From Endomicrobium sp. (lineage in GTDB: Bacteria; Elusimicrobiota; Endomicrobiia; Endomicrobiales; Endomicrobiaceae), in assembly GCA_031264105.1 (NCBI GenBank), contig JAISEM010000031.1, positions 1 to 57,239 on the forward strand: a stretch of DNA of 57,239 bases, given 5' to 3'. The notes below the pieces were generated by a model that did no database searches, was not told the DNA's origin, and saw only the letters and a program-made list of their open reading frames with translations. Position numbers and translations under genes: made by a program. Shown piece after piece: positions 1,886 through 23,374 of the stretch (the stretch's first letter is position 1; each line of letters begins with the position of its first letter).

Positions 1886-2574
1886 TTCACCTCCCTTCCC
1901 TACTCAAAATGCGCTTTGTTCATAATACGTCTTTCCTCTCAATTATCTTTGCTACTTTCCATTTCTGTCTAAACCTGATAAATTAATCCTATGAGCCAAG
2001 ATTTAACCTACAACTCAAGGTATACTCCTTTTTACTCAATCCTCCTATACTTTCTCATACATTTATGACTCTTTAAAATTACATCTTTCCTCGAGTTTAT
2101 ACAACCCATCTATATTTTTAAATCAGATTGCGCTTCTTAGTGTAAGTGGATAAATTGAATGACTTCACAATTTTCTTACTTTCTATTTTTCACAGAGAGA
2201 GTAGAGTAGAGGGGGAGAGGAGGAAAGCGGGTAGTTTGTTCTTTGGAGTTTCAAAGGATATATTATTTAATAGTAGTAATAATTAAGAAAAAAAATATTG
2301 ATAAATAAGCAGTATTTAGGAAGAACACTATTACTCTACCACAAAAGTTTTACTATGTCAATCGAACTGTTAATGGCCAAGTTCTATTTGCTATTGCAAT
2401 ACGAGCCGCTGTTTGCGAAGCAAGCCTAAAATATCCGTTATTCCTATGTCGTTGCCGTTAAAGATGTTTAAAAGGGAAAAGAAGTGGTAGTGGAGAATTT
2501 GATAACAACAATACTTCTTTTGACTCTCTTTTGCCGTAGCGTCTATGTCGGCGCTATATTTGGTAGTTACAAGC
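1886..2574. other. Gene-free AT-rich stretch between exported-protein remnant and ftsI
   Basis: About 690 bases show no convincing gene on either strand. A purine-rich patch lies near 2200-2235. Downstream of ftsI (2280-2574, minus strand) an open frame of about 67 codons exists, but it has no ribosome site and no recognisable motif. This is where murE is expected in many dcw clusters, and no murE motif was found. The stretch may be decayed coding DNA. Confidence 0.5.
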
Positions 2575-4284
2575 CTAACGGACTTCTCTCGTTAAGACAT
2601 TGACATCATCTTTTTCTATACCCAAATATTGCGCAGTTCGTTGCGCAATATTTGCAAATACTGGCGATGCAACAGATGCAGCATAGTAACTGCTTCCTTT
2701 AGGCTCATCTATAATTACAAGTATCACAAGTTCAGGGTTCATCGCTGGAACCATACCACAAAATGAAGCGATATAATATTTTGTTGAATATGTTTTAATA
2801 GAATGATCTACTTTCTGAGCCGTACCAGTTTTCCCTCCAACAGTATATCCTTGTATTTTTGCACTCTTTCCTGTACCCAAATTAACAACATTTTTAAGCA
2901 ATTTTTTCATTGTACGCGCAGTATCTTCTGAAACTACTCTTCTTATTTCTTTTTTCTCAAAAATCTCTTCTTCAGAATTGCACTTTGTTATTTTTTGTAT
3001 TACAAAAGGCTTTAACAAAACACCGTCATTTGCCAATGCTGAAAAAGCATTTATTATCTGTAGAGCAGAAACTCCTATACCTTGTCCAAAAGATATATTT
3101 GGAAGAGTTAACGCATTCCATTTTTTTACATCCATCAAAAGCCCTTTAGCTTCTCCAGGCAAATCTATGCCAGTTAAAGAATAAAAACCAAACTTTCTTA
3201 TATAATCATAGAAGACATCGTTTCCCATTCTTTGGGCTATTTTTATCATTCCTATATTAGATGACAATTCAAAAGCTCTGCTCAAAGTAGCACTGCCTTC
3301 TATTTTGTGATCATCTTTTATAGTATGGCCAGCTATTTTAAATTTTCCATTTTCTAAATAAAGAGAATCTGATGCTTTTATTTTTCCTTCTTCCAAAGCA
3401 GAGGCAACTGTTACTATCTTAAATGTAGAGCCTGGTTCGTATAAATCGCTGATTGCACAATTTTTTAAACATTTTATATCTTTGATTTTATCTGAACAGT
3501 CAAAATCAGGCAAAGACACCATAGCAAGAATTTTACCTGTTTTTGGATCTTGAACTATGCATATTGCTTTTTTTGCTTTATATTTTTCAAAGGCTTTTCT
3601 AATCTCTTGCTCGGCTATAAACTGTATATTTCTGTCTATAGTAAGTTCTACATTGCAACCACAAATATCTTCAACATCAACTAATTTGTTACGAATTACA
3701 CGCCCTATCCCATCACGAATTATCTTTGTTTTTACAGTTTCGCCTGAAAGATTTACATTGCATATTTTCTCAATACCCTCTAGCCCCAAACCATCGCAGT
3801 CAGTTATGCCAAGAATATGCGCTAAAAGGCGTTTTTGGGGATATTGCCTTGTATATTTAGTTTCAAAACCAATACCTTTAAACTTTGCTGCCTTTATTTT
3901 TTCAGCGATAAAAGGATCAACGTCAAAAGCTATTGGAATATAAGACAATCCTTTTAAATCTTCTAATTTTTTCTCTTTTATTTTTATCCCATTTTCTGAC
4001 AACGCTTTTCTTAAGCTTTCAAAATTGTCTATCATTTTAGCGTCAAAAAAAATTGTATATTTCTTTATACTTGTCGCTAATATATTTCCTTTTGAATCAA
4101 GAATATCTCCACGTTTTGGAACTTCTATATTTTCTCGGTTGACCATTTTGTCGACAGTACGATTTATTCTTGCGTGAAGGAATATCTGTAAATATATAAG
4201 TTTTACAAACAAAAGAAAAAAGACCGATAGCGCCATAAGCGCTAAAACAGTCTTTCTGTTAATTCTATTTTTTTTCTTCCTCAT
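2575..4284 (-). CDS. ftsI: Peptidoglycan transpeptidase FtsI (PBP3-type)
   Basis: A 569-residue class B penicillin-binding protein that cross-links septal peptidoglycan in the periplasm. A basic N-terminus is followed by one membrane anchor (about residues 13-35), then the pedestal domain, then the transpeptidase. The three active-site motifs are visible: S-x-x-K as PGSTFKI, S-x-N as SSNIG, and K-T-G as GGKTGTAQK. Length is normal for the family and no lesions are seen. It follows ftsL by 10 bases in the order rsmH-ftsL-ftsI of the classical division and cell-wall (dcw) cluster. The murE gene that usually comes next is not recognisable. Confidence 0.95.
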   Translation of the reverse strand: MRKKKNRINRKTVLALMALSVFFLLFVKLIYLQIFLHARINRTVDKMVNRENIEVPKRGDILDSKGNILATSIKKYTIFFDAKMIDNFESLRKALSENGIKIKEKKLEDLKGLSYIPIAFDVDPFIAEKIKAAKFKGIGFETKYTRQYPQKRLLAHILGITDCDGLGLEGIEKICNVNLSGETVKTKIIRDGIGRVIRNKLVDVEDICGCNVELTIDRNIQFIAEQEIRKAFEKYKAKKAICIVQDPKTGKILAMVSLPDFDCSDKIKDIKCLKNCAISDLYEPGSTFKIVTVASALEEGKIKASDSLYLENGKFKIAGHTIKDDHKIEGSATLSRAFELSSNIGMIKIAQRMGNDVFYDYIRKFGFYSLTGIDLPGEAKGLLMDVKKWNALTLPNISFGQGIGVSALQIINAFSALANDGVLLKPFVIQKITKCNSEEEIFEKKEIRRVVSEDTARTMKKLLKNVVNLGTGKSAKIQGYTVGGKTGTAQKVDHSIKTYSTKYYIASFCGMVPAMNPELVILVIIDEPKGSSYYAASVASPVFANIAQRTAQYLGIEKDDVNVLTREVR

Positions 4285-4294
4285 TTTAAGGAAC

Positions 4295-4546
4295 CTAATT
4301 AATATAAACTACATATTTCTCATCTGGACGCGAAAATTTTTTTTCTTTAGCTATTTTATCCATTTTTTCTAAAGCAAGAATTGAATTTATTTTTAATCTC
4401 AAAGTATCATTTTCAGAACTGAGCTTATCATAATCAGTCTGTAAACTACTAACTTTATATGCCATTCTCATTGACATATTTTGCTGCCATAAATAAACAA
4501 AAACTGCAATAATCGTAGCTGCAACAAAAAAAAATGATCTACGCAT
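4295..4546 (-). CDS. ftsL: Cell-division protein FtsL
   Basis: An 83-residue bitopic membrane protein: a short cytoplasmic start, one transmembrane helix (FFFVAATIIAVFVYLWQQ, about residues 5-22), then a periplasmic coiled coil of about 40 residues and a short tail. FtsL normally binds FtsB/DivIC and FtsQ and helps activate FtsWI. Sequence conservation in this family is weak. The call therefore rests on size, topology and position between rsmH (8-base overlap) and ftsI (10-base gap). Translational coupling to rsmH is likely. Confidence 0.8.
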   Translation of the reverse strand: MRRSFFFVAATIIAVFVYLWQQNMSMRMAYKVSSLQTDYDKLSSENDTLRLKINSILALEKMDKIAKEKKFSRPDEKYVVYIN

Positions 4547-8316: not shown

Positions 8317-11300
8317 TTACGCTTCTTGAGCATCGGGATCAGTTTCAGTTTTGTCCTGTTTATTCATTTTTACGGATATTATTTTTGAAACGCCATGCTC
8401 TTCCATTGTTACCCCGTAAAGAACGTCTGTCATTTCCATTGTGCGTTTATTGTGTGTTACAACTAAAAACTGCGTCTTTGATGAAAAATCTTTAATCATA
8501 GCATTATATCTACCTACGTTTGCATCATCTAAAGGAGCATCAACTTCGTCAAGAATACAAAAAGGAGGAGGTTTAACCATAAAAAATGCAAAAAGTAAAG
8601 CAACGGCAGTTAAAGCCTTTTCGCCGCTAGAACATAGAGAAATGTTCTGCAACTTTTTTCCAGGAGGCTGCGCGCAAATATCTACACCGCTTTCAAGCAA
8701 ATTATTTTCATCGGTAAGCATTAAATCGGCTTCTCCACCGCCAAACAGCTTTCTATAAAGCGTTTTAAAATTTTCTCTCACTATATTAAATGTCTTTTTG
8801 AAATTTTCCATAGTTGACTCGTTTATTTTCTTTATAACTTCAAGCAAATCGTCTTTTGCTTTTAATAAATCTTGTTGTTGAGACAAAAGAAAGTTATAGC
8901 GCTGCTCTAAAGCATCATATTCTTCTTGAGCTGCAAGATTAACAGAGCCAAGAGATTCCATTTTTCTTTTTATCTTTGATATTTCTTCATTATTTACTTC
9001 AACGCCATTAAAATCATTCTTTATTTCTTCATAATTCTTGCCATACGTTTCAGCTAATCTTTTTTCTAAATCACTCCTCTGATATTCAAAATTTTTCAGA
9101 TCAACTTGCATAGCGTTAACTTCATTGTTTAAAGCATCAACTTTACTGCGTAAATCATGCCACTCATTAGTTTTAGAATCTAAAGTATCTTGAGTGGACT
9201 GCCTGTCAGCCAAAGAAGCTTGAATTTCATCCTCTTTTTGAGCTTGGCTTTCATACAACTGCTGAATTTTTATAGTTTCAGTCTCTTGGGAAGTAAGCAA
9301 TTCAGAAAGCTTCTCGTCATTTTCTACAATTTTAGTTTCAGCATACTGTATTTGCTGTTTTATGTTCGCAATATTATCTGTCAAATACTGCTGACCTTTC
9401 TGTTTATTTTCAAATTCAACAGTCTTTCTATCCCAAAGACTGCGAGCTTCCATCATTGACGGAGCTAAACTTTCTTCATCTTTTCTTACTGTCAAACTAT
9501 CATTTTCCATAATTTTTAATTCTTCGTAAAATCTATTTTCTTCATCTTCGCAGCCTGAAAGTTTTGTTTCAAATGCGGATATTTTCTCATTAAATGAGCC
9601 TAGTTCAGCAGTTTTTACGCTTATCTCTTCTTTGTGTTTATTTATCTCTTCAATGATACTTTTTATAGTATTTCTTTTCTCTTCTATTTGGCTGCGCTTG
9701 TCTTCTATTTGAGTCTTTGCCTTAATAGAGTCAAAACCCTGTCTTTCTTTTTCTAGACATAAATTTATTTGATCTCCATTTATTTGTTCAATTTCAGATT
9801 GTGTTGAAACAATATTTTGCCTAAGTTCCTCCGACTTGGCTTGAAGATTTTTTATCTGCTCTTCAATCAACACAGGTTTTTCGAAAGATATTTTTCCTCC
9901 GCCGGAAACGACAACGCTGCCATAAACTTTATTTCCAGAAATCAACGCTCCAGAACAAACATAACGAATTATTTTTTCGTCGGAAGAATTATACCTTAAA
10001 TGTTTTATAAGTTCGCTATGACCTTGAGGTAAACCTATAGTAGAAGTTTGAATCGAGTCAGAAATTTTATCGGCAACTATAAAAGAAAGACGACTCAAGT
10101 TGTTTTCTTCTAAAAATTTAATAGCCTGCTCTGCTTTTTGAGTATTTTCGCAGACAAGGTAATTTAGCTTATCACTAAGAACAAAAGCCGCTAATACCTG
10201 ATTATCTTCATCTGAATCAATTAAACTGCTTATCGGGCCTCTTGCTAAATTGCCAAGCGCCAGCACAGCTCTTATTGAAGATCTCACTGGATCTTTTTGG
10301 TCAAACTCTTTAAGCGTAGCTACACGAGACTCATTCGATGCCAAAGACTCTTTATATTGTAATAAAACATTCTCCAAAGCTTTACATCTTTCCCCATTTT
10401 CTAAAATAGTCTTGCTTATTTCTTCTTTTTTCATTTCAGAAGAACATAGAAAAGAGCTTGCGGCTTCAAGATCAGCCTCTATAGCAGCTATTTCTTGACT
10501 GGTAGACTCTACATCATTTTCAAGCCTTGACATTGTTCTCTCTAAAGAGGCGACATCTGCATCCAAATGTATCTTACTTTCAGAAAGATCAGCGCTTAAA
10601 TTAACCTGCTGCTCTTTTTCAGATTCTATTTGCGAAAGTTTAGTCCTTATTTCATTTTCTCTAATTTCTAGTTCAGACAATCTACTCTTTATAAGATTAT
10701 ATTGACGTTCTTTTTCTTTATAATCAGCCTCATATTTAACCGACTCATCTGATAGAGTTCCATCATCTAAATTTAAAGTTTTAAGTTGTTCTTCCATATA
10801 AGCAAGTTTTTCTCTATTTATTACTAATTCTTGTTCAAGTCTTTCTTTTTCGGACTTGATTTCAGCTTCTCTTTGCATGACATGTTGGACTATTTGATCC
10901 GCCACGCCAATCTGCATTTTTATTTCGCTTAAGTCTCTATTTATATTAACATAAGACTCATTTTTTTCATCTAAAGAAAGCCTCATTTCTTGTATGCTAG
11001 CATCAAGCTGAGCCATAGAAGTATTTGTTGATTCAAACTCTTTTATTTTAGGATCAAGCTCTGCTTTTATTCTTGATATTTCGTTGTCGCCATAAGATAT
11101 GCGTTTAACTAAAGAGGCAACCTCATATTTTGCAAGATCTTCTTGATATTGTTTATGTTGTTTTGCTTTTTTCGCAGCAATGTCCAACGCTGTTATCTGT
11201 TGCTTATGTATAGCTAAAGCGTCAGATAAGCGAGACATATCAGCATCTATTTTTTCAAGCCTTCTTAAAGTTTCTTCTCTTCTTACTTTATATTTAGAAA

Positions 11301-11802
11301 CTCCGGCGGCTTCTTCAAACAATTCTCTTCTATCTTCTGGTTTTGCAGTAGTTAAAAAATCAACTTTCCCCTGTTCAATTATGGAATATCCGTCTGACCC
11401 TATTCCAGTATCCAAAAACATGTCTCTTATATCTTTAAGCCTGCATTGAATTTTATTTATAAAATATTCGCTCTCGCCACTTCTAAATAGCCTTCTTGTT
11501 ACTGTAACTTCAGAATAGTCAACCGGCAAAATATTTTGCGAATTGTCAAAAGTGAGTGATACTTCAGCCATTCCAGTTGTAGATCTTGTTTGAGTTCCTC
11601 CAAATATCACTTCTTGCATATTGGAGCTTCTCATTGATTTTGCTCTCTGCTCTCCAAGGCACCAACGAATAGAATCTGATATGTTAGACTTGCCACAGCC
11701 ATTAGGACCAATAATTCCCGAGATGCTTGGCTCAAAATCTAACAATGTCTTATCGGCAAAAGATTTAAAACCACACACTTCTACTTTCTTTAAATACATC
11801 AA
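8317..11802 (-). CDS. smc: Chromosome segregation ATPase SMC
   Basis: A full-length 1161-residue SMC protein that dimerises and compacts and segregates the chromosome with ScpA/ScpB. The N-terminal ABC half has Walker A GPNGCGKSN (about residue 34). Two long coiled coils flank a hinge near residues 505-660. The C-terminal half has the signature LCSSGEKALTAVAL and Walker B FCILDEVDAPLDDAN. The 72-residue gene upstream overlaps it by 4 bases. No frameshift or internal stop is seen over 3.5 kb of AT-rich sequence, which argues that the lesions elsewhere are real. Confidence 0.97.
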   Translation of the reverse strand: MMYLKKVEVCGFKSFADKTLLDFEPSISGIIGPNGCGKSNISDSIRWCLGEQRAKSMRSSNMQEVIFGGTQTRSTTGMAEVSLTFDNSQNILPVDYSEVTVTRRLFRSGESEYFINKIQCRLKDIRDMFLDTGIGSDGYSIIEQGKVDFLTTAKPEDRRELFEEAAGVSKYKVRREETLRRLEKIDADMSRLSDALAIHKQQITALDIAAKKAKQHKQYQEDLAKYEVASLVKRISYGDNEISRIKAELDPKIKEFESTNTSMAQLDASIQEMRLSLDEKNESYVNINRDLSEIKMQIGVADQIVQHVMQREAEIKSEKERLEQELVINREKLAYMEEQLKTLNLDDGTLSDESVKYEADYKEKERQYNLIKSRLSELEIRENEIRTKLSQIESEKEQQVNLSADLSESKIHLDADVASLERTMSRLENDVESTSQEIAAIEADLEAASSFLCSSEMKKEEISKTILENGERCKALENVLLQYKESLASNESRVATLKEFDQKDPVRSSIRAVLALGNLARGPISSLIDSDEDNQVLAAFVLSDKLNYLVCENTQKAEQAIKFLEENNLSRLSFIVADKISDSIQTSTIGLPQGHSELIKHLRYNSSDEKIIRYVCSGALISGNKVYGSVVVSGGGKISFEKPVLIEEQIKNLQAKSEELRQNIVSTQSEIEQINGDQINLCLEKERQGFDSIKAKTQIEDKRSQIEEKRNTIKSIIEEINKHKEEISVKTAELGSFNEKISAFETKLSGCEDEENRFYEELKIMENDSLTVRKDEESLAPSMMEARSLWDRKTVEFENKQKGQQYLTDNIANIKQQIQYAETKIVENDEKLSELLTSQETETIKIQQLYESQAQKEDEIQASLADRQSTQDTLDSKTNEWHDLRSKVDALNNEVNAMQVDLKNFEYQRSDLEKRLAETYGKNYEEIKNDFNGVEVNNEEISKIKRKMESLGSVNLAAQEEYDALEQRYNFLLSQQQDLLKAKDDLLEVIKKINESTMENFKKTFNIVRENFKTLYRKLFGGGEADLMLTDENNLLESGVDICAQPPGKKLQNISLCSSGEKALTAVALLFAFFMVKPPPFCILDEVDAPLDDANVGRYNAMIKDFSSKTQFLVVTHNKRTMEMTDVLYGVTMEEHGVSKIISVKMNKQDKTETDPDAQEA

Positions 11803-12017
11803 ATTTTCCCTGTAAGTTTAATTTTTGCGCTTTTTTGAGAATAATCTTCCGGGGATAGTCCGTCATATGATTTCCTTAATCGTTCTAGATAATTATTTGA
11901 AGTCTTATCATCATTTCTCAAAAAAGTTCTTGCAAGAACAAACGCGCTACACAATACCGCAGAAAATAAACATAATTTTCCTAATCTTTCGCAAAAAGTA
12001 GTATTTTCTTTCAACAT
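11799..12017 (-). CDS. Small single-pass membrane protein of unknown function
   Basis: A 72-residue protein from ATG 12017, chosen because an AGGAA ribosome site stands about 9 bases before it; an in-frame ATG nine bases upstream is too close to that site. A charged start is followed by one hydrophobic helix (LCLFSAVLCSAFVLARTF, about residues 15-32) and a polar tail. It overlaps the 127-residue gene upstream by 7 bases and smc downstream by 4, so the three are translated as a unit. No family recognised. Confidence 0.7.
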   Translation of the reverse strand: MLKENTTFCERLGKLCLFSAVLCSAFVLARTFLRNDDKTSNNYLERLRKSYDGLSPEDYSQKSAKIKLTGKI

Positions 12018-12394
12018 ACTTTGCATTTCCTTTTGTCAGATTCTGCAATAATATTTCCGTGATGATTTACAAGTCTTGCTGATAAAGAATGACGTCCTTG
12101 ATCAAAGCCCATCCAGTCAAACCGACAGTATCCGCTTCCAAATCTGCAAGGAAGCCATTCGCCGTCATTGAATGAAATTTCGACATATCCATCATTAGAT
12201 GCTCCTATACGCAATGCATAGTGCGATCCGTTAATTGCTTCTGCTTCATTTGCTTCATTTGGATAATCTATAACTATGTAGGAACTTGATGGAACTTCTT
12301 CTAAAAAGATCTCTTTATTAGATGCTGATTTAACAGTTTTCCTCTTAACGGTTCCTTCTTTTACTTTTGTTTTTTTCTTTACGGACCTTGCCAT
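12011..12394 (-). CDS. Hypothetical protein with a beta-rich C-terminal domain
   Basis: A 127-residue protein with a very basic N-terminus (MARSVKKKTKVKEGTVKRK) resembling a DNA- or RNA-binding tail. A domain of about 80 residues follows with alternating hydrophobic residues: YALRIGAS, YVEISFNDGEWLPCRFG, then GRHSLSARLVN, ending in KCKVC. The pattern suggests an immunoglobulin-like or carbohydrate-binding beta sandwich. It begins the unit that ends with smc. The combination of basic tail and beta domain is unusual; function unknown. Confidence 0.65.
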   Translation of the reverse strand: MARSVKKKTKVKEGTVKRKTVKSASNKEIFLEEVPSSSYIVIDYPNEANEAEAINGSHYALRIGASNDGYVEISFNDGEWLPCRFGSGYCRFDWMGFDQGRHSLSARLVNHHGNIIAESDKRKCKVC

Positions 12395-12465: not shown

Positions 12466-13578
12466 TTAATTACCATACACAGTATACTTTTTATAAATTT
12501 TACCATTCATCATCTCAGCAGTACGTTGCGTCATTATATTGTCATCGAGAACCCAAGAGAGCTCACAATGCTTGTAGCCTATTTTTAAAGCGTTTTTTAG
12601 ACCCCTTTCATACATAATGGCTTCTACGCCTTTACGCCTGTATTCTTTTACAACGCCCATAACCATGAGTCTTAGAGAATCAATCTTTTTTTTATAATAT
12701 AAAAATTTAAAAATACCAAATGGAAAAAGCTTTCCGTTGAGTTTTTCTAATACCTGATTATAATCAGGCAAAGAAATAAGCATACCTATAGGTTCTTCAG
12801 AAATACTTGCTATAATAATCATATCAGGATCCATTATCAGCTTAAGTTTTGAAGCTATTGCTGAAAATTCTTCATCACTCCAAGGAACAAACCCCCAGTT
12901 TTTCTCCCAAGCTCTATTATATATAGAAATCGCAGCTTTTAAATCTTCTTCGTATGAATCTTTACTGACAGTTTTAATTTTTAGACCAGGAAGTTTTTTC
13001 TTAGCCATACCAACAATACGTTCAAGCCTTTTAACCCTTGAGTCAGCTGAAACATCCATATCGTAAGCATATAATTCTTTTATTTTTTTAAGTCCTGACT
13101 GTTCTGTAAGATTCAAGTAATATTCAGGCGTGTAGGGCATCATAAGACTTGGAGGAATATCAAAACCTTCCAATAAAAATCCGCATTCGTTATTTGTAGA
13201 TGGATTCATGGGGCCAATCATTTTTTTGATATCCCGTTCATTTAACCATTCTTTGACTGCGCAAAAAAGAGACTTCGCTGTTTGGACATCGTCAATACAT
13301 TCAAAAAAACCAAAAAATCCGCATTTGTCATCTTGGAAAGACATATAATTATAATCTATTATAGCTGCAATTCTGCCAATAACATTACCATTATTATCGT
13401 AAGCTAAAAACAATTGTCTTCTCGCATGCAGCCAAAAAGGATTTTTATCTTCAGAAATAATCCGCTTTACGTCAGAAATTAATGGCGCGATCCATTTACT
13501 GTTTTTTGAATAGATTTTCCAAGGAAATTTAACAAATTGCTCTATATGACTTTTACTATTAACTTTCACTATTCTCAT
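12466..13578 (-). CDS. GNAT-type N-acyltransferase of the YghO family; candidate bacterial ceramide synthase
   Basis: A 370-residue protein. The middle block IGPMNPSTNNECGFLLEGFD (about residues 121-140) followed by PPSLMMPYTPEYY is characteristic of the YghO-like branch of GNAT proteins. The C-terminal half has a GNAT core, with acetyl/acyl-CoA binding suggested around GVVKEYRRKGVEAIMYERG. Established knowledge: in Caulobacter, a GNAT protein related to YghO N-acylates the sphingoid base (bCerS), working with a serine palmitoyltransferase and the reductase CerR. Inference: this gene does the same, because it lies 19 bases after an SPT-like gene that is itself preceded by a CerR-like gene. 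It could instead acylate another amine. Confidence 0.72.
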   Translation of the reverse strand: MRIVKVNSKSHIEQFVKFPWKIYSKNSKWIAPLISDVKRIISEDKNPFWLHARRQLFLAYDNNGNVIGRIAAIIDYNYMSFQDDKCGFFGFFECIDDVQTAKSLFCAVKEWLNERDIKKMIGPMNPSTNNECGFLLEGFDIPPSLMMPYTPEYYLNLTEQSGLKKIKELYAYDMDVSADSRVKRLERIVGMAKKKLPGLKIKTVSKDSYEEDLKAAISIYNRAWEKNWGFVPWSDEEFSAIASKLKLIMDPDMIIIASISEEPIGMLISLPDYNQVLEKLNGKLFPFGIFKFLYYKKKIDSLRLMVMGVVKEYRRKGVEAIMYERGLKNALKIGYKHCELSWVLDDNIMTQRTAEMMNGKIYKKYTVYGN

Positions 13579-13597
13579 TTGTATATTTCCTAAAAAA

Positions 13598-14785
13598 TTA
13601 CGCTATCACGCCAAGATGTTTACCAACTTTTTTGAATTTGTCTAGTATAAAATTTAAATGGTCCTCTGTATGTGTCGCCATATAGCTTGTTCTTATTATT
13701 GCTTGCCCTTCAGGAACTGCAGGAGTTACAACAGGAGAAGCAAAGATCCCTTCGTCAAAAAGCATTCTCCACATTTTGAAAACAGCTAAGTCATTACCGA
13801 CGGTTAAAGGGATAATTGAAGACTGAGAGTTATTTACATTATATCCCATAGACTTAAATTCTTCTTTCATTTTTTTTGCAGTATTCATCAATTTAGTTCT
13901 TCTATCAGGCTCAGCAACAACCAAATCTAAAGCTGCGTCAATAGCTCCTACACATGCAGGAGGAAGGCTTGCTGTAAAAATCATGCTTCTTGCATTATGC
14001 TTTATATAATTGATAACTCTAGAACTACTAGCTATAAATCCGCCGATTGAAGCCAAAGATTTTGAAGCTGTAGCCATTATAACATCAACATCATCTTGCA
14101 TATTAAAGTGTTCGCCAGTACCCATACCATTCTTACCCAAAACACCGAGTGAATGAGCTTCATCAACAAAAATTCTAGCGCCATACTTTTTTGCAAGTTT
14201 TGAAATTTCAGGAAGATTTGTAATGTCACCTTCCATACTAAAAATACCATCTACAACTATCAAGAGTCCTTTTCCTTGATGATTGGAAAGCTGTCTTTCT
14301 AAGTCTGCCATATCGTTATGTTTAAATCTTGCCATTTCCCCAAAAGAGAGACGAGAACCATCTATAATTGAAGCATGATCCAATCTATCTGCAACCACAA
14401 CTTCGCCTTTTCCAACAAGCGACGAAATCGCACCTAGATTTGAATGATGTCCTGTGGTAAAAAGAATCGCTTCTTCTTTTCCTACAAATCTAGCAAACTT
14501 TTTTTCAACTTTTTCATGTAGATCGTTAGTTCCGTTAAGAAATCTTGAACCTGTACAAGAAGTACCGTATTTCTTTGCAGCGATAACTGAAGATTCTATA
14601 ACTTTGGGATGACTTGCAAGACCAAGATAATTATTTGAACAAACAACTATTTTCTTTCTGCCATCGACTATAACTTCAGGACCTTGTTCAGACTCAACTC
14701 TATGAAAATATGGATAAAAGCCAGTTTGTTTTAGATCATCAGCGACATGAAAGCTAAAACATTTTTCAAAAACGTCTATACTCAT
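13598..14785 (-). CDS. spt: PLP-dependent alpha-oxoamine synthase; candidate serine palmitoyltransferase
   Basis: A 395-residue enzyme of the family that includes serine palmitoyltransferase, 8-amino-7-oxononanoate synthase (BioF) and 2-amino-3-ketobutyrate CoA ligase. ATG 14785 was chosen because AGGAGG lies 8 bases upstream. NNYLGLASHP, GSRFLNGT, TGHHSNLGAI, VDEAHSLGVLG and the Schiff-base lysine in ATASKSLASIGGF are visible. The family condenses an amino acid with an acyl thioester. Neighbours decide between members: no biotin genes are nearby, while a YghO-like GNAT follows and a CerR-like reductase precedes. Serine palmitoyltransferase is therefore the best inference, giving 3-ketosphinganine. 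KBL or BioF remain possible. Confidence 0.72.
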   Translation of the reverse strand: MSIDVFEKCFSFHVADDLKQTGFYPYFHRVESEQGPEVIVDGRKKIVVCSNNYLGLASHPKVIESSVIAAKKYGTSCTGSRFLNGTNDLHEKVEKKFARFVGKEEAILFTTGHHSNLGAISSLVGKGEVVVADRLDHASIIDGSRLSFGEMARFKHNDMADLERQLSNHQGKGLLIVVDGIFSMEGDITNLPEISKLAKKYGARIFVDEAHSLGVLGKNGMGTGEHFNMQDDVDVIMATASKSLASIGGFIASSSRVINYIKHNARSMIFTASLPPACVGAIDAALDLVVAEPDRRTKLMNTAKKMKEEFKSMGYNVNNSQSSIIPLTVGNDLAVFKMWRMLFDEGIFASPVVTPAVPEGQAIIRTSYMATHTEDHLNFILDKFKKVGKHLGVIA

Positions 14786-14811
14786 TATAGAATCTCCTCC
14801 TGTTTTTGTAT

Positions 14812-15792
14812 CTAAAACCAATTATTTTTCAAATACCAATTATACGTAATTTCAGAAGCAACTTCAAGACTAGTAAATTTTATACTTAAGTCGTTTTCTG
14901 CAGGAAGCGTATCTGCGACCCAAGCATCTTGAAGCATTTCTATAATTTTTTGTTTGTTTAATACAACAGGTTTTCTGGTTATACTAGATAAAGTTTCCAT
15001 TATAAAACCAGCTGCTTTAAATATAAAATCTGGAACAGGCAAAGCAATAGCCTTAACCCCCACAGATAAGGATATTATTTTTCCTATATCACCCCAAGTA
15101 TATGTTGATGAATTTGCAAGGTAGTAAGTATTATTATTTGTTTTTGTATTTTCAAGAGAAGAAAGTACAGATTTTGCAATATCTTTAACATACACAAGCT
15201 GCAAAAGCCTTTTCTTTAATGTTACAGGTCTTAAGCGTCTATGTACGAGACTGAAAAATATAAATATATCTTTATCCCTAGGGCCATAAACACTTGCGGG
15301 ACGCAAAATTGTATATGGAATTTTATCTTCAAGAATTTTCTTTAATTCTTTTTCCGCCTCTATTTTGCTTAAACCATAATCTGAAACAGGTTTAGGAATA
15401 TCCGTAATTTTCCTTACAGCTCCAAGTTGCGATGCGCCCATTGCCGCTTGCGAAGAAATAAATATAAATTTTTTTAAACTTGGATTACTTTTTAAAACTG
15501 ATTCGCAAAGACTTTTTGTATTTTCTACATTTGTTTTAAAATATTCCTCCTTATATATTGCGCGGACGACTCCTGCGCAATGTATAACGGCATCTACATT
15601 TTCTACAATTTCTTGTAAGAATTTTTTATTCCCTAAATCGCAATATTTGTGTTCAAGCGGGAGATCTTTAATCCATTCTAAATTTGACGTTTGCCTTATA
15701 GCGCATATAACCTTATGATTAGCTTCTACTAATGCCTCCGCAATATGGCTTCCAAGAAATCCGTTCGCCCCAGTAAGTAAAATTTTAGACAT
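14812..15792 (-). CDS. Extended SDR (NAD-dependent epimerase/dehydratase type); candidate ceramide reductase CerR
   Basis: A 326-residue Rossmann-fold protein with the nucleotide-binding motif GANGFLGSHIAEAL at the N-terminus and the catalytic Y-x3-K as YGLSKIEAEKEL (about residue 139). The substrate half is variable, with ILRPASVYGPRD typical of extended SDRs. It is first in a three-gene unit (26 bases before the SPT-like start). In bacterial sphingolipid synthesis the 3-keto group is reduced by CerR, an enzyme of this class. By sequence alone it could also be a sugar epimerase or 3-beta-hydroxysteroid-like dehydrogenase; the context favours CerR. Confidence 0.7.
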   Translation of the reverse strand: MSKILLTGANGFLGSHIAEALVEANHKVICAIRQTSNLEWIKDLPLEHKYCDLGNKKFLQEIVENVDAVIHCAGVVRAIYKEEYFKTNVENTKSLCESVLKSNPSLKKFIFISSQAAMGASQLGAVRKITDIPKPVSDYGLSKIEAEKELKKILEDKIPYTILRPASVYGPRDKDIFIFFSLVHRRLRPVTLKKRLLQLVYVKDIAKSVLSSLENTKTNNNTYYLANSSTYTWGDIGKIISLSVGVKAIALPVPDFIFKAAGFIMETLSSITRKPVVLNKQKIIEMLQDAWVADTLPAENDLSIKFTSLEVASEITYNWYLKNNWF

Positions 15793-17086: not shown

Positions 17087-18541
17087 TTACTTTTTTTCTA
17101 TATCTTTACTTTGATCGTATAATGCTTTTATCGCTTTCTGCGCTATTCTAGGGGCACAAACAGTAGCGTTTCCACCAATACAACCGCCTTCGCAGCCCAT
17201 AACTTCCACTAAATTGCCTTCAAGGCATTTTTTGTCTTTGACCATCTTTTTTAACCGCTTTATTGTTTCTTTATTTAAACCGTTAATGACGTAAGGCTTT
17301 ACAAAATCTTTTTTATCTTCTAAAAGTTTAGCTACAGCACCAGCAACCCCGCCTGTAACTCCAAAATTGCGTCCTTGTTTTGAGCTTTCAATATCAAACT
17401 TCTCTTCAGCGCAATCTTGAACTTTAATATTTTTAGCCGATAACAAAGCTGCAATTTCTTCATAATTTATAACATAGTCAACATTTTTATCAGCGCAAGC
17501 TTCATTTTTTTTAGCAACGCATGGACTTACAAAAACAGTAATATAGTCCAGGTGTTGTTCTTTAGCCTTTTGAGCTATATAATACATAGGCGTTTTTGTA
17601 GTTGATACAAACTCTTTTATATCTGGCAAATGCTTTTTTATAAATTGATTATATCCGGCGCAACATGAAGTGGCCATAAAAGGTTCGCCTGCTTGCATAC
17701 GCTCGTCAAACTCATGAGCTTCATTTTCAGCGGTAATATCGGCGCCCTGAGCAACTTCGTATACATCATAAAACCCGGCTTTTTTTAAAGCTGTTTTCAG
17801 TTGATATACAGATCCTTGAAGCTGGCCAACAAGAGAAGGCGCTATCATAGAAACAACTTTCTTACCAGCTTTTATATTTTTTAAAACATCAATTATCTGG
17901 CTTTTCTCGTTGACGGCTCCAAATGGGCATGCCATCATGCATTTGCCGCATGATATACAAACATTGTAATCTATTTTAGTCGTACCATTTTCATTCTTTT
18001 TAATAGCATCTACAGGACATGCGTCTTCGCAAGGGACTGCTATTTTCACTATAGCGTTATATGGGCATGCTGGTATACACATTTTGCAATTTTTGCATTT
18101 AGCAGGATCTATTTTAGATTTACCGTTTACAATGCTTACAGCGCCAAACTTACACGCAGTTTTGCAAGATCTTGCTACGCATCCTTGACATACATCCGTA
18201 ACATAAATTCTGTTTGGAACGCAACCCTGACATGCAGTTTTAATAAGAGTAAGAGGTTTATCGTCAATATGTTCGCGCTCAAGAGCTTTTTTTGCATAAA
18301 TAAATAAATCAACAAATTCATCGGCATCTTCTATAGAGAAACCAAGTCCTGCTATAACTCTATCTCTTAAAATCGCTCTTTCTTTATAAATACAACATCT
18401 ATAAAGAACCTCGTATTCCTTTGGACGCATGTCTAAAGGAATACGACGAATACTCTCTTCAAAGTTGTCTGAGAAAAATGCTCTTATTATTCTTTCTAAT
18501 ACTTCTTTTTTTAAACCTATTTCCTGATTCTTATTGTTCAT
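17087..18541 (-). CDS. Monomeric [FeFe] hydrogenase, group B-like
   Basis: A 484-residue ferredoxin-type hydrogenase that reduces protons to H2 or oxidises H2 in the cytoplasm. An N-terminal helical extension (about 1-95) is followed by cysteine-rich iron-sulfur domains (CQGCVARSCKTAC, CKNCKMCIPACPYNA, CISCGKCMMACPFGA). The H-cluster domain has L1 TSCCAGY, L2 SPCVAKKNEA and L3 EVMGCEGGCIGGN. L1 and L2 differ from the canonical TSCCPxW and MPCxxK, as in group B (CpIII-like) enzymes. It starts 16 bases after adhE in the same unit. No maturation genes (hydEFG) are in this window. Confidence 0.88.
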   Translation of the reverse strand: MNNKNQEIGLKKEVLERIIRAFFSDNFEESIRRIPLDMRPKEYEVLYRCCIYKERAILRDRVIAGLGFSIEDADEFVDLFIYAKKALEREHIDDKPLTLIKTACQGCVPNRIYVTDVCQGCVARSCKTACKFGAVSIVNGKSKIDPAKCKNCKMCIPACPYNAIVKIAVPCEDACPVDAIKKNENGTTKIDYNVCISCGKCMMACPFGAVNEKSQIIDVLKNIKAGKKVVSMIAPSLVGQLQGSVYQLKTALKKAGFYDVYEVAQGADITAENEAHEFDERMQAGEPFMATSCCAGYNQFIKKHLPDIKEFVSTTKTPMYYIAQKAKEQHLDYITVFVSPCVAKKNEACADKNVDYVINYEEIAALLSAKNIKVQDCAEEKFDIESSKQGRNFGVTGGVAGAVAKLLEDKKDFVKPYVINGLNKETIKRLKKMVKDKKCLEGNLVEVMGCEGGCIGGNATVCAPRIAQKAIKALYDQSKDIEKK

Positions 18542-18557
18542 TCTTTTCCCGCTTTAA

Positions 18558-21194
18558 TTATTGCATTTGCCCATTATATGCTTTTAGGAAAACCTCTTTA
18601 ATATCTTCCATCAAAGGATATACAGGATTTGCACCTGTGCACTGATCGTCAAAAGCCTGCTCAACCAACGTATCAAGTTTATCCTTAAAATCTTTCTCAG
18701 AAACACCCATTTCTTTTATTGAAAGGGGTATCTGAATATCTTTCTTAAGCCGAGTTATGGCATTAATCAACAATTCTACTTTTTCGCCATCATTCTTTCC
18801 GCCAAGGCCTAACTCATCAGCAATCTGCCCGTATTTTGCTTTCGCATTTGGGAATTTGTACTGCGGGAATATGGCTTGTTTCCTAGGCTTATCAGTTGCA
18901 TTGTATCTTATAACTTGACTGATAACCAACGCATTTGCAATTCCATGTGGAATATTAAATGCCGCGCCAAGCTTATGAGCTAACGAGTGTGACAGCCCCA
19001 AGAAAGCATTTGCAAAAGCCATACCAGCCAATGTAGAAGCATAATGCATTTTCTCTCTTGCTATTGGATCATCTCCACCTTTTGAATAAGAGCGAGGTAA
19101 ATATCTAAATATAAGCTTAACGGCTTCTAATGCCGGAGAGTTTGTAAAGTTTGTGGCAAGCACAGAAACATAAGCTTCTAAAGCATGTGTTAAAGCGTCT
19201 ATTCCAGAAGCAGCGCAAAGGCCTTTAGGCATAGAGTCTACAAAATTTGGATCAATTATTGCCATATTGGGAGTCAATGCATAATCTGCTATAGGGTATT
19301 TAATGCGAGTTGAATCTTCTGTAATTACAGCAAATGGAGTAACTTCAGATCCAGTTCCAGAGGTGGTAGGTATAGCAATTAACTGGGCTTTAGTTCCAAG
19401 TTCAGGCATTTTGCAGATTCTCTTTCTTATATCCATAAAGCGCATTGCCACGTTTTTGAAATCTATATCTGGATTTTCATACATCAACCACATAATTTTT
19501 GCCGCATCTATTGGAGAACCACCTCCAAAAGCGATAATAACATCAGGCTCGTAAGTTCTAAGCATAGACAATGCTTCGTTTATAGTTGAAACGGTAGGAT
19601 CTGGCTTTACATCAAAGAATATTTGATAGTCAATATTTATTTCTTCCAAAACTTTGGTTATATTGTAAATAGAGCCAGAGTTAAAAAGAACTCTGTCGGT
19701 AACTATAAATGCGCGCTTTCTGCCTTCAAGTTCGCGTAAAGCTAAATCTGTAGCGCCTCTTTTAAAATAAATTTTTGATGGAACTCTAAACCACAACATA
19801 TTTTCACGTCTTTCTGCAACAGTTTTATAGTTCAAAAGGTGTTTTACCCCAACGTTCTCGCTCACAGCGTTTCCTCCCCACGAACCGCAACCAAGAGTTA
19901 ATGACGGTTCTAGTTTAAAGTTAAACAAATCTCCTATTCCACCTTGTGATGATGGAGTATTGATCAATACTCTTCCTGTATGCAGTTTGTTTGCGAAATA
20001 ATTTATTCTCTCTTTTTTTCTTTCGTCAGTATATAAAACTGAAGTATGCCCTGCACCGCCAAGCTCTACAAGTTGATAAGCTTTTTCAACAGCATTTTCA
20101 AAATTATCAGCTTTATATATTGCTATCACAGGAGATAACTTCTCATGGGCAAATTCTTCGTCTAAAGAAATTTCGCTAACTTCACCAGCAATAACTTTGG
20201 CGTCCTTAGGGACTTTAACTCCCGCCATCTCAGCTATTTTATACGCAGGTTGACCTACAATAGCAGCGTTTAGTTTTCCATCATTGATTATGGTTTTTGC
20301 AACTTTATCTTTTTCTTGTTTATTTAGTATGTAAGCTCCGCGAAACGCCAATTCTTTTATAACTGCATCATAAATATCTTTAACGACTATTATTGATTGC
20401 TCTGAAGCACAAATCATACCATTATCAAATATTTTTGACATAAGAATAGAAGAAACCGCCATCTGGATATTAACAGTTTCGTCAATAATTGCAGGGGTAT
20501 TTCCAGCGCCTACGCCCAAAGCAGGTTTTCCAGAAGAATAAGCAGCTTTAACCATTCCAGGCCCGCCTGTGGCAAGAATTGTTGCTATATCTTTATGTGT
20601 CATGAGCAAATTTGTAAGTTCTAAAGATGGAACATCTATCCATCCTATTATATTTTCCGGCGCGCCTGCTTTAACAGCAGCGTCAAGAATAATTTTAGCT
20701 GCAGCTATTGTAGAATTCTTTGCTCTAGGATGAGGCGAGAAAATAATTCCATTTCTCGTTTTTAAAGCAATTAAAGATTTAAATATTGCCGTAGATGTAG
20801 GGTTTGTAGTCGGAACTATGCCTGCAATAATGCCGATAGGGTCTGCTACTATTTTAATCCCATTAGCTTTATCTTCGCTTATAAGTCCGCAAGTGCGAGC
20901 GTCTTTATGTTTATTGTAGATATATTCGGAAGCAAAATGGTTTTTTATAACCTTATCTTCAACAATTCCCATGCCAGTTTCTTCAACTGCCATTTTCGCT
21001 AATGGAATCCTTGCTTGATTAGCCGCGATAGCCGCAGCTTTGAAAATCTCGTCAACCTGCTCTTGCGTAAAGCTTGAATAAATTCCCTGCGCTTTTTTCA
21101 CTCGCTCTAAAAGAGCATTAAGGGCATCAGGAGTATCTACTAACGAGGTCTGGTTTTTAATCTGCTGTTGAACGTCTATTACTTTTTTTGGCAT
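18558..21194 (-). CDS. adhE: Bifunctional acetaldehyde/alcohol dehydrogenase AdhE
   Basis: An 878-residue fusion that reduces acetyl-CoA to acetaldehyde and then to ethanol with two NADH. ATG 21194 was chosen because AGGAGAG lies 6 bases upstream; an in-frame ATG nine codons earlier has no such site. The aldehyde dehydrogenase half (about 1-440) has the catalytic cysteine in GMICASEQS. The iron-dependent alcohol dehydrogenase half has GGGSPIDAAK and the metal-binding histidines in HSLAHKLGAAFNIPHG. Full length and intact. It is the main NADH sink and is co-transcribed with the hydrogenase. Confidence 0.96.
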   Translation of the reverse strand: MPKKVIDVQQQIKNQTSLVDTPDALNALLERVKKAQGIYSSFTQEQVDEIFKAAAIAANQARIPLAKMAVEETGMGIVEDKVIKNHFASEYIYNKHKDARTCGLISEDKANGIKIVADPIGIIAGIVPTTNPTSTAIFKSLIALKTRNGIIFSPHPRAKNSTIAAAKIILDAAVKAGAPENIIGWIDVPSLELTNLLMTHKDIATILATGGPGMVKAAYSSGKPALGVGAGNTPAIIDETVNIQMAVSSILMSKIFDNGMICASEQSIIVVKDIYDAVIKELAFRGAYILNKQEKDKVAKTIINDGKLNAAIVGQPAYKIAEMAGVKVPKDAKVIAGEVSEISLDEEFAHEKLSPVIAIYKADNFENAVEKAYQLVELGGAGHTSVLYTDERKKERINYFANKLHTGRVLINTPSSQGGIGDLFNFKLEPSLTLGCGSWGGNAVSENVGVKHLLNYKTVAERRENMLWFRVPSKIYFKRGATDLALRELEGRKRAFIVTDRVLFNSGSIYNITKVLEEINIDYQIFFDVKPDPTVSTINEALSMLRTYEPDVIIAFGGGSPIDAAKIMWLMYENPDIDFKNVAMRFMDIRKRICKMPELGTKAQLIAIPTTSGTGSEVTPFAVITEDSTRIKYPIADYALTPNMAIIDPNFVDSMPKGLCAASGIDALTHALEAYVSVLATNFTNSPALEAVKLIFRYLPRSYSKGGDDPIAREKMHYASTLAGMAFANAFLGLSHSLAHKLGAAFNIPHGIANALVISQVIRYNATDKPRKQAIFPQYKFPNAKAKYGQIADELGLGGKNDGEKVELLINAITRLKKDIQIPLSIKEMGVSEKDFKDKLDTLVEQAFDDQCTGANPVYPLMEDIKEVFLKAYNGQMQ

Positions 21195-21304
21195 TTGCGT
21201 CTCTCCTTTGATTATATCCACAGAAACTATCTCCGCTTTTACAAACTCCTTTCGGTTTCATCTTATAACAACACAGAATGGACAAACCAACTATATAAAT
21301 TTAT

Positions 21305-22534
21305 TTAGTCACGCCTTACAGATTTTATTTCTTTTATTATATTAGGAATTATTTCGTACAAATCGCCTTCTAAAGCATATGTCGCTGTTTGCATCATTGG
21401 GCAAGACGCATCTTTATTTATTGCAATAATAATATCTGAAGAATTCATTCCAACAGTATGTTGTATTTGTCCAGATATTCCACACGCTATATAGACTTTA
21501 GGCGCAACTGTTTTTCCTGTTTGACCTATCTGATGGGAATACGGTATCCATTGAGAATCTACGGCAGCTCTTGAAGCGCCTACAGCTCCGTCAAGAAACT
21601 CAGCAAGTTCTTCAAGAAGTTCAAAGCCTTCAGCTTTGCCAACGCCTCTTCCCCCGGCTACAATAATATCAGCATCGTCAATATTAATATTTGAGCTTGA
21701 ATCTTTTATAAAACCTAAAAACTTTGTTCTGTTGACTAATGTAGCAACTTCAACTTTACAATCTACAATTTCGCCTTTTCTTCCTTCCTCTACTTTTGCC
21801 TCTTTAAAGACTTTATGCCTAACTGTAGCCATTTGAGGGCGATGGCCAGGAGTTAAGATAGTAGCCATAATGTTTCCGCCGAAAGCAGGTCTAGTTTGTT
21901 GGAGATTTCTTGTTTCAGGATCAATTTCTAAAGATGTACAGTCTGCCGTAAGACCCGTGTATATTCTTGCAGCAACTCTTGAAGCAAAAGAACGACCTAT
22001 ATTTGTAGCGCCCATCAAAATAATCTCGGGTTTTTCTTTCTTTATAATCTGAGTCAATATGCTTGCATAAGGATCGTCTTGGAATTCAATAAAGATTGGA
22101 TCGTCGCAAACATAAACTTTGTCAGCGCCTCTGTTTATCAAATCTTGGGCGTTTGATTTTATATTGTCGCCAATTAAAACAGCACTGAGGCTCGTACCCA
22201 GCTGTTTTGCAAGTTTTTTCCCTTCATTTAGAAGTTCGTACACTACACCTGCGATCTCTCCATGTCTTTGTTGAGCATAAACCCATACGCCTTTGTATTC
22301 ACTTTTATCAACACCTGCTTGATGCGCGTCTTTCGCAAGCTCTATTGCATTAAAGTTACACGCCTGTACACAAGTTCCACAATATGTACATTTGTTTAAA
22401 TCTATAACCGCCAGCTTAAATTTCTTAGGATGTTCGGATCTTTCAACCGTTGAAATAGCGTCAAAAGGACATGCTCCTGCGCATTGTCCACAACCGACGC
22501 ATTTATCGTTTAATACTTTTATACTATTTGTCAT
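21305..22534 (-). CDS. etfA: Electron-transfer flavoprotein alpha subunit with N-terminal 2[4Fe-4S] ferredoxin
   Basis: A 409-residue EtfA. Residues 1-65 form a bacterial ferredoxin domain with two clusters (CVGCGQCAGACPFDA and CTYCGTCVQACNFNA). The rest is a standard EtfA, with the C-terminal FAD-binding region around GGRGVGKAEGFELLEELA and PKVYIACGISGQIQH. Ferredoxin-fused EtfA is known from electron-bifurcating complexes such as the caffeyl-CoA reductase CarE of Acetobacterium. It follows etfB by 54 bases. With the acyl-CoA dehydrogenase upstream it would form a NADH- and ferredoxin-linked enoyl-CoA reductase; the substrate is unknown. Confidence 0.93.
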   Translation of the reverse strand: MTNSIKVLNDKCVGCGQCAGACPFDAISTVERSEHPKKFKLAVIDLNKCTYCGTCVQACNFNAIELAKDAHQAGVDKSEYKGVWVYAQQRHGEIAGVVYELLNEGKKLAKQLGTSLSAVLIGDNIKSNAQDLINRGADKVYVCDDPIFIEFQDDPYASILTQIIKKEKPEIILMGATNIGRSFASRVAARIYTGLTADCTSLEIDPETRNLQQTRPAFGGNIMATILTPGHRPQMATVRHKVFKEAKVEEGRKGEIVDCKVEVATLVNRTKFLGFIKDSSSNINIDDADIIVAGGRGVGKAEGFELLEELAEFLDGAVGASRAAVDSQWIPYSHQIGQTGKTVAPKVYIACGISGQIQHTVGMNSSDIIIAINKDASCPMMQTATYALEGDLYEIIPNIIKEIKSVRRD

Positions 22535-22588
22535 TTATAATTTCTCCGTTCTAATCTAAAAAAGCTATATTCAAAAAATAAATCTCTT

Positions 22589-23374
22589 CTATATAAGGCT
22601 CAAGTCAGACAATCTCTTTACTAAAGCCGCAGCAACTTCATTAGGCTCTCCAGTAAATTTTTCTCCGCCTGTTCTTTGTGGTGGAGTAAAGATTTTCATA
22701 ACCTGAGTAGGAGATCCGTTAAGGCCAGTCTTTTTAGTATCAGCGCCAATTGCTGCAGCATCTAAAACTTTGATAACTGCTTTTTTTGCCGCCATTTTGC
22801 CTTTTAATGATGCTACTCTTGGATTATTTATTTCTTTAACTACAGTTAAAAGAACTGGAAGTGAACTTTCTATTAAATCGTAACCATCTTCCATCATTCT
22901 TTCAACCTTTATAGTTTTATCATCAATTGATTCTACTTTTTTAACACAAGCTACATGTGCAATATCCGACATTTCTGCAATTCCAGGTCCTACTTGAGCA
23001 GTATCTCCATCTGATGCCTGTTTGCCACAAATAACTATATCAAAATTACCTAATGATTTTATAGCCATTGACAAAGCGTAGGAGGTGGCTAAAGTATCGG
23101 CTCCGCCAAAAGCTCTATCGCTTAGTAAAACACCTTCGTCTGCACCTTTTGCTATAGCTTCTCTTAAAATAGCCTCTGCCTGAGGATGCCCCATGGTAAT
23201 AACTGTTACTTTTGCGCCAACTTTTTCTTTTATTCTTACGCCTTCTTCGATAGCATACTCGTCAAAAGGATTTATTATAGATTCTACTCCATCTCTTTTT
23301 AATCTACCCGTATCATGATCAATTTGAACATTTGTGGTATTAGGAACCTGCTTAATGCAAACAATTATATTCAT
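22589..23374 (-). CDS. etfB: Electron-transfer flavoprotein beta subunit
   Basis: A 261-residue EtfB beginning MNIIVCIKQVPNTTNVQID and carrying the NPFDEYAIEEGVR block and the family signature region ending RVASLKGKMAAKK. In bifurcating Etf, the beta subunit binds the FAD that takes electrons from NADH. It pairs with the ferredoxin-fused EtfA downstream. The acyl-CoA dehydrogenase gene lies 120 bases upstream across a hairpin that may lower read-through. Intact. Confidence 0.95.
   Translation of the reverse strand: MNIIVCIKQVPNTTNVQIDHDTGRLKRDGVESIINPFDEYAIEEGVRIKEKVGAKVTVITMGHPQAEAILREAIAKGADEGVLLSDRAFGGADTLATSYALSMAIKSLGNFDIVICGKQASDGDTAQVGPGIAEMSDIAHVACVKKVESIDDKTIKVERMMEDGYDLIESSLPVLLTVVKEINNPRVASLKGKMAAKKAVIKVLDAAAIGADTKKTGLNGSPTQVMKIFTPPQRTGGEKFTGEPNEVAAALVKRLSDLSLI

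What the first reader, a model, noticed from the sequence alone, without database searches (positions are those of the whole stretch)
12466..15792. Candidate sphingolipid (ceramide) synthesis operon in an Elusimicrobiota-like bacterium
Seen: three genes on one strand with 19-26 base gaps encode an extended SDR, an alpha-oxoamine synthase with a Schiff-base lysine, and a GNAT protein with the YghO-type NPSTNNECGFLLEGFD block. Known: Caulobacter ceramide synthesis uses SPT, a YghO-related GNAT (bCerS) and the SDR-type reductase CerR. Inference: all three steps are present here in one operon with no biotin genes, so the cell probably makes ceramide-like lipids, unusual for this phylum and relevant to a gut or protist-associated lifestyle.
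Basis: partly seen in the sequence, partly recalled or inferred. Interest (0 to 1): 0.75.

Follow-up and report, generated by a model that had tools for sequence, protein, structure and literature searches.

The report
Ceramide-synthesis operon in termite-gut endosymbiont
Three neighbouring genes in a bacterium that lives inside termite-gut protists very probably build the core of sphingolipids (ceramide), a fat once thought rare in bacteria; the gene set turns out to be common across this bacterial phylum, but some close relatives have lost only the first enzyme and kept the other two, hinting that they may take the starting lipid from their host.

Summary
Window 12466-15792, minus strand, holds SDR - alpha-oxoamine synthase - GNAT with 26- and 19-base gaps. 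The synthase falls on the serine palmitoyltransferase (SPT) side of a tree against KBL/BioF. It has every SPT active-site residue checked, including the alanine that separates SPT from the sulfonolipid enzyme SulA. The same trio, or SPT plus GNAT, recurs side by side in many phyla and in the experimentally studied type of E. coli sphingolipid locus. Ceramide-backbone synthesis is therefore the best reading (about 0.8). GNAT = bCerS and SDR = CerR rest on similarity plus context; the trees give no exclusive clades.

The claim 'unusual for this phylum' is wrong: the GNAT is in 192 of 248 sampled genomes of the phylum and an SPT-type gene in about as many. The nearest named genome is Ca. Endomicrobiellum devescovinae, so a flagellate endosymbiont is likely, but the operon is not a marker of that lifestyle.

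The new point lies just outside the finding. One clade of the genus (G001, G017, G122) has lost SPT. Two members keep intact GNAT and SDR under purifying selection, which would fit salvage of host long-chain bases. Whether bacteria salvage sphingolipids at all is an open question.

The parts
14812..15792 (-). Extended SDR oxidoreductase, CerR-like (proposed 3-oxo reductase); first gene of the operon
   Evidence: GxxGxxG and YxxxK kept; its highest-identity full-length plasmid-collection hits are SDRs of records or assemblies that carry SPT and bCerS-like genes; adjacent to SPT in families f1, f3-f7, f9, f10
14794..14801 (-). AGGAGGAG ribosome-binding site of the synthase
   Evidence: upstream sequence ATACAAAAACAGGAGGAGATTCTATA followed by ATG at 14785
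13598..14785 (-). Alpha-oxoamine synthase of serine palmitoyltransferase type; second gene
   Evidence: NF047600 502 bits (cut-off 640), Sphingobacterium SPT 392 bits; N51, H137, D208, H211, K242, A272, R365 present
12466..13578 (-). Tandem-GNAT protein of the YghO/bCerS family (proposed ceramide synthase, N-acyltransferase); third gene
   Evidence: 33% identical to the Sphingomonas and 32% to the E. coli YghO-locus proteins; AlphaFold model is a tandem GNAT

Best explanation
The three genes form an operon for de novo synthesis of a ceramide-type lipid backbone. The SPT-type enzyme condenses an L-amino acid (most likely serine) with an acyl thioester to a 3-oxo long-chain base. The GNAT protein N-acylates it, and the SDR reduces the 3-oxo group with NAD(P)H; the order of the last two steps is undecided, as in Caulobacter. 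Shown here: gene content, order, SPT-side placement, SPT-type active-site residues, conserved linkage across phyla. Inferred: the reactions, the serine substrate, the acyl donor and the lipid product.
For: Best NCBIfam model is SPT (502 bits; next 388). Best solved structure is Sphingobacterium SPT at 392 bits, next KBL/BioF at 293. SPT rows and KBL/BioF rows are split with SH-aLRT 100 once the longest branches are removed, and the window is on the SPT side. All SPT active-site residues checked are present. Ala272 stands where SulA has Lys281 (PMC9304779); it is Ala in every SPT-side row, while the KBL/BioF rows have Thr or Asn. GNAT: in the best 80 related loci of named genomes 51 have an SPT in the fetched stretch, 42 a related SDR, 41 both. 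SPT-GNAT-SDR are contiguous in Rubrobacter and Streptomyces and clustered in Aureispira. The E. coli YghO protein sits with SPT, ACP, SDR and acyl-AMP ligase, the gene set reported for BL21(DE3), whose SPT makes 3-oxo-sphinganine (PMC9386255). Window SPT is under purifying selection: dN/dS 0.027/0.146 against the closest relative.
Against: The SPT score is below the curated NF047600 cut-off (502 of 640). GNAT and SDR trees do not give exclusive bCerS or CerR clades; GNAT relatives without SPT neighbours exist in the same family. No dedicated acyl carrier protein or acyl-AMP ligase is in the operon, unlike the proteobacterial loci. The SDR has no evident export signal, while Caulobacter CerR is periplasmic. 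The AU test did not reject the window clade branching at the base of the SPT side, next to KBL/BioF (p 0.10 and 0.15). No lipid data.
Confidence: 0.8

Rival explanations
1. The operon makes a ceramide-like lipid from another amino acid, for example alanine or glycine, giving 1-deoxy-(dihydro)ceramides.
For: Residues checked do not by themselves fix serine; 1-deoxysphingolipids are reported from euxinic waters where many phyla carry Spt-like genes (PMC11334938).
Against: No residue that would exclude serine was found; the nearest characterised enzymes (Sphingobacterium SPT, E. coli BL21 SPT) use serine.
Confidence: 0.1
2. The synthase is a cysteate acyltransferase and the operon makes sulfonolipids.
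For: SulA shares the fold and nearly the whole active site with SPT (PMC9304779).
Against: The position of SulA Lys281 is Ala272 here, as in all SPT-side rows; the cysteate-acyltransferase chains 28eh and 7u7h score 253 and 241 bits against 392 for SPT.
Confidence: 0.03
3. The synthase is a KBL or BioF enzyme and the three genes are neighbours without a shared pathway.
For: Same superfamily; KBL/BioF models also score high (382-388 bits); AU test p 0.10 and 0.15 for a basal position next to KBL/BioF.
Against: SH-aLRT 100 split, SPT-type Ala272 and SKS motif; the genus has a separate BioF with bioA and bioD, degraded in the window's own genome; linkage to GNAT and SDR across phyla.
Confidence: 0.04
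4. The GNAT acylates a different amine, such as a peptide, sugar or polyamine, and is linked to SPT for another reason.
For: Family members without SPT neighbours exist, one next to HlyD/OEP efflux genes; closest folds are tandem GNATs acting on glucosamine and thiols.
Against: Tight linkage with SPT in many phyla; homologues in the E. coli and Sphingomonas loci; the corresponding acyltransferase is required for ceramide in Caulobacter (PMC9386255, PMC11324152).
Confidence: 0.08

Closest known systems
Caulobacter crescentus ceramide genes (Spt, bCerS/CC_1154, CerR/CC_1164)
   Same: Three enzyme types: SPT, acyltransferase, SDR-type reductase (PMC11087976, PMC11324152)
   Different: Here all three are in one short operon, whereas in the proteobacterial set cerS is said always to belong to another operon than spt (PMC11324152). 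No AcpR/AasR genes here; CerR of Caulobacter is periplasmic. The Caulobacter proteins themselves could not be fetched for a direct comparison.
E. coli spt-acpR-epi-aasR-yghO locus (as in BL21(DE3))
   Same: SPT, SDR and YghO-type GNAT; GNAT 32%, SPT 38%, SDR 26-28% identical
   Different: The E. coli locus adds an acyl carrier protein and fatty acyl-AMP ligase, and yghO is on the other strand
Bacteroidota SPT (Sphingobacterium multivorum 3a2b; Bacteroides type, NF047600)
   Same: Closest characterised synthase: 392 bits; 45% identity to the Bacteroides finegoldii relative
   Different: Below the NF047600 cut-off; in Bacteroides the three genes are scattered and the GNAT is only about 26% identical
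Spt-like 'clade B' loci with linked CerR and bCerS in 38 phyla of Black Sea MAGs (PMC11334938)
   Same: Same gene linkage and, in all likelihood, the same wider group of synthases
   Different: That paper's main text does not name Elusimicrobiota; its supplement could not be read

Membership tests
Serine palmitoyltransferase (SPT) | Groups with SPT and apart from KBL/BioF in a tree | tested here: met
   SH-aLRT 98-100 for the SPT side; AU test (p 0.10 and 0.15) leaves a basal place open
Serine palmitoyltransferase (SPT) | Active-site Asn, stacking His, Asp, His, Schiff-base Lys, Arg and Ala at the SulA-Lys281 position | tested here: met
   N51, H137, D208, H211, K242, A272, R365
Serine palmitoyltransferase (SPT) | Condensation of serine with a long-chain acyl thioester | not testable with these tools
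   Needs an enzyme assay
NCBIfam NF047600 (Bacteroidota-type SPT equivalog) | Score at or above the curated cut-off of 640 bits | tested here: not met
   502 bits; no genome of the phylum sample reaches it, so it is not filed under this subfamily
Bacterial ceramide synthase bCerS | Same GNAT family as the YghO/bCerS proteins of known sphingolipid loci | tested here: met
   32-33% identity over 99% to E. coli and Sphingomonas locus proteins
Bacterial ceramide synthase bCerS | Falls inside a clade limited to ceramide-locus GNATs | tested here: inconclusive
   proteobacterial and Bacteroidota references form their own branch (support 91); members without SPT linkage lie near the window clade
Bacterial ceramide synthase bCerS | Linked to SPT | tested here: met
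CerR | Extended SDR with Rossmann GxxGxxG and YxxxK, distantly similar to NDUFA9 | tested here: met
   (NDUFA9 chains at about 5e-8)
CerR | Exclusive clade with SDRs of known ceramide loci | tested here: inconclusive
   all lie in one 99-supported group that also holds Gox2253 (3wj7) and a haloarchaeal SDR
CerR | Periplasmic location | not tested
   Protein starts at the Rossmann motif (MSKILLTGANGF), so no N-terminal export signal is apparent
Sulfonolipid SulA | Lys at the position of SulA Lys281 | tested here: not met
   Ala272

The most novel reading that the evidence does not exclude
Some members of this endosymbiont genus (G001, G017) no longer make long-chain bases but keep a working GNAT and SDR that acylate and reduce bases taken from the protist host. 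That would be a bacterial sphingolipid salvage pathway, with the window's operon as its intact de novo ancestor state.
Probability: 0.3. Interest if true: 0.72.

Novelty: new member of a known kind. Interest (0 to 1): 0.45.

Why it matters
Sphingolipids were long thought rare in bacteria. A compact three-gene operon in an intracellular symbiont lineage with a reduced genome, kept while its biotin genes decay, says the lipid is worth its cost there. The graded loss in sister genomes (SPT dead first, GNAT and SDR kept in two and decayed in one) gives a natural test of whether bacteria can salvage sphingoid bases, stated as unclear in the 2024 literature (PMC11324152). It also corrects the impression that the pathway is exceptional in Elusimicrobiota.

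Tried and rejected
Direct comparison with Caulobacter bCerS and CerR: the single named-genome scan returned closer phyla and no Caulobacter; Sphingomonas, E. coli and Bacteroidota locus proteins stood in. Headgroup genes: no diacylglycerol-kinase family protein was found in the own genome (the genome is 82% complete), so the final lipid is unknown. LPS replacement: LpxC is present, so sphingolipids do not obviously replace LPS. Neighbours in the distant Elusimicrobiota families (nucleotidyltransferase, AccC/AccB, HD and response-regulator proteins, HypD/HypE type, isocitrate-dehydrogenase type) were typed and gave no sphingolipid enzyme. Fold search of the GNAT gave only general tandem-GNAT relatives (best TM 0.61-0.63). 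AU tests ask about the base of the SPT side and did not settle it. Promoter-like sites (28 found, 21.6 expected by shuffling) were not used. G158 was set aside: its GNAT runs into a contig end, so SPT absence there means nothing.

Full report
OBSERVATION. The window holds three minus-strand genes at the stated place: SDR 14812-15792, synthase 13598-14785 and GNAT 12466-13578. The gaps are 26 and 19 bases, and the synthase has a strong AGGAGGAG site before its ATG. A conserved small ORF (12011-12394) and smc (8317-11802) follow.

WHOSE GENOME. The window is G000:C27, a 987-kb draft genome, 82% complete. The best named match to the GNAT is Ca. Endomicrobiellum devescovinae (84% identity), then Endomicrobium sp. 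and other Elusimicrobiota. Genome G064 has a contig of the same length, 135,766 bases, and is very probably that same assembly. So the window comes from the Endomicrobia lineage named after flagellates of termite guts; the association itself is taken from names and literature, not tested here.

THE SYNTHASE. NCBIfam ranks SPT first (502 bits, below the curated 640) with KBL/BioF-type models at 388 or less. Among solved structures the Sphingobacterium SPT leads by about 100 bits. In a 49-row tree the SPT side, holding Sphingobacterium, Bacteroides, Sphingomonas and E. coli SPTs and the window, is separated from KBL/BioF (SH-aLRT 98). With the longest branches removed the split has support 100. 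AU tests of a basal position of the window clade next to KBL/BioF gave p 0.10 and 0.15, so the deep branching inside the SPT side is unresolved. Active-site residues are those of SPT. The one position reported to separate SPT from the sulfonolipid enzyme SulA (Lys281 there, Ala in SPT; PMC9304779) is Ala272 here; in this set it is Ala in all SPT-side rows and Thr or Asn in the KBL/BioF rows.

THE GNAT. No family model beyond a weak PF00583 and no close solved structure. The AlphaFold model (mean pLDDT 87) is a tandem GNAT. Its relatives in annotated plasmid records include the YghO proteins; in E. coli, YghO sits in a locus with SPT, ACP, an SDR and a fatty acyl-AMP ligase. A locus with these five genes in E. 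coli BL21(DE3) was studied: its SPT makes 3-oxo-sphinganine from acyl-AcpR, and the last gene is the proposed N-acyltransferase (PMC9386255). Of the best 80 related loci in named genomes 51 hold SPT and 41 hold SPT and SDR; titles include Zixibacteria, Nitrospirae, Planctomycetota, Acidobacteria, Ignavibacteria and Deltaproteobacteria. Some of the remaining loci are cut by contig ends; others truly lack SPT, and one such Elusimicrobiota copy lies next to HlyD/OEP genes. The family is therefore wider than ceramide synthesis, and the tree does not give a bCerS-only clade.

THE SDR. It has GxxGxxG and YxxxK. Its highest-identity full-length plasmid-collection hits are SDRs of records that also carry SPT and bCerS-like genes (Prevotella, Aureispira, Rubrobacter) or of Bacteroidota assemblies in which the three genes are scattered. 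NDUFA9 chains appear at about 5e-8, in line with the published CerR-NDUFA9 similarity (PMC11087976). The tree places it with SDRs of other SPT-GNAT loci (support 85), inside a larger group (99) that also holds Gox2253 and a haloarchaeal SDR.

NOT UNUSUAL FOR THE PHYLUM. The GNAT is in 192 of 248 sampled genomes of the phylum (133 of 177 good ones). An SPT-grade synthase (E below about 1e-125, my count of the table) is in roughly 185. In 39 stretches spanning 16 family codes the order SDR-SPT-GNAT is kept in f1, f3-f7, f9 and f10, and SPT-GNAT without that SDR in f8 and f12-f16. A published survey already found Spt-like genes, often linked to CerR and bCerS, in 38 phyla (PMC11334938).

SPT LOSS INSIDE THE GENUS. 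Of 42 genomes of the genus, 28 have a full SPT. G001, G017 and G122 form one clade on SDR+GNAT (SH-aLRT 98) and none has an intact SPT; their only other synthase is of KBL/BioF type, in G001 next to bioA- and bioD-like genes. Between SDR and GNAT all three keep an eroded SPT remnant: alignment scores to the intact G144 operon are 415, 121 and 297, against shuffled means of 221, 91 and 155. G017 and G122 share one collinear deletion that removes the part coding for the catalytic lysine, so SPT was dead before they split. In G122 SDR and GNAT are broken too. G001 and G017 keep both genes open with the motifs checked. Between G001 and G017 dN/dS is 0.124/0.725 for GNAT and 0.119/0.789 for SDR. 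The G017 branch is 0.048 against 0.37 for the G122 pseudogenes since their split. Neutral drift of the G001 GNAT at half that dS would bring about 13 stops, never zero in 2000 runs. So GNAT and SDR were retained under selection after SPT loss, at least in G017. The simplest use would be acylation and reduction of long-chain bases from the eukaryotic host. Whether bacteria salvage sphingolipids is described as unclear in PMC11324152. Alternatives are another substrate for both enzymes, or an SPT missed elsewhere; the two genomes are rated 99% complete and the locus itself is intact apart from SPT.

MECHANISM. Most likely SPT makes 3-oxo-sphinganine, then the GNAT acylates and the SDR reduces. 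The order is debated for Caulobacter: acylation first in PMC11087976, reduction first proposed earlier. Lack of an apparent export signal on the SDR and of linked AcpR/AasR suggests a cytosolic route using acyl-CoA or housekeeping acyl-ACP; this is inference. The headgroup is unknown; LpxC is present, so LPS is probably made too.

VERDICT. A real ceramide-backbone operon, a new and otherwise unremarkable member of a known, widespread kind. It gains interest through the SPT-loss series in sister genomes.

Noticed in passing
L094 (G001), L095 (G017), L127 (G122), compared with window 12466-15792: A clade of the same genus has lost SPT; GNAT and SDR remain intact and under purifying selection in G001 and G017 but are pseudogenes in G122. 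Candidate sphingoid-base salvage.
   Followed up: yes
L126 (G000:C33:1-8000), about 1785-4500: Degraded biotin-type cluster (BioF-like pieces with stops, ketoacyl-synthase and FabG-like fragments) in the window's own genome, intact in G001 (L230) with bioA- and bioD-like genes.
   Followed up: partly
L067 1525-7122; E. coli collection: The spt-acpR-SDR-ligase-yghO locus is at least 80% present in 4,039 of 5,426 complete E. coli genomes, yet in K-12 MG1655 an IS5 sits beside yghO and the other genes are missing from that stretch.
   Followed up: partly
window 12011-12394: Small ORF of unknown family, conserved between the GNAT (or SPT) and smc in nine loci of families f1-f6 (cluster c5); possible further member of the operon.
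   Followed up: partly
L108 6031-7164, L110 6077-7195, L099 1231-2355: GNAT paralogues of the same family without SPT neighbours form their own branch; the L110 copy lies before TetR/OEP and HlyD genes. Function unknown.
   Followed up: partly
L109, L119 and similar (families f13, f16): SPT-GNAT pair lies beside a cytidylyltransferase-like (RfaE/HldE-type) gene and AccC/AccB-type genes, with no CerR-like SDR adjacent; which reductase serves there is open.
   Followed up: no
window 17087-23374: Group B [FeFe] hydrogenase, AdhE and an acryloyl-CoA-reductase-like electron transfer flavoprotein pair just upstream of the operon: a fermentative gene block.
   Followed up: no
G074, G116, G126 (same genus, 90-95% complete): Neither SPT nor GNAT found; whole pathway apparently lost or unassembled.
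   Followed up: no
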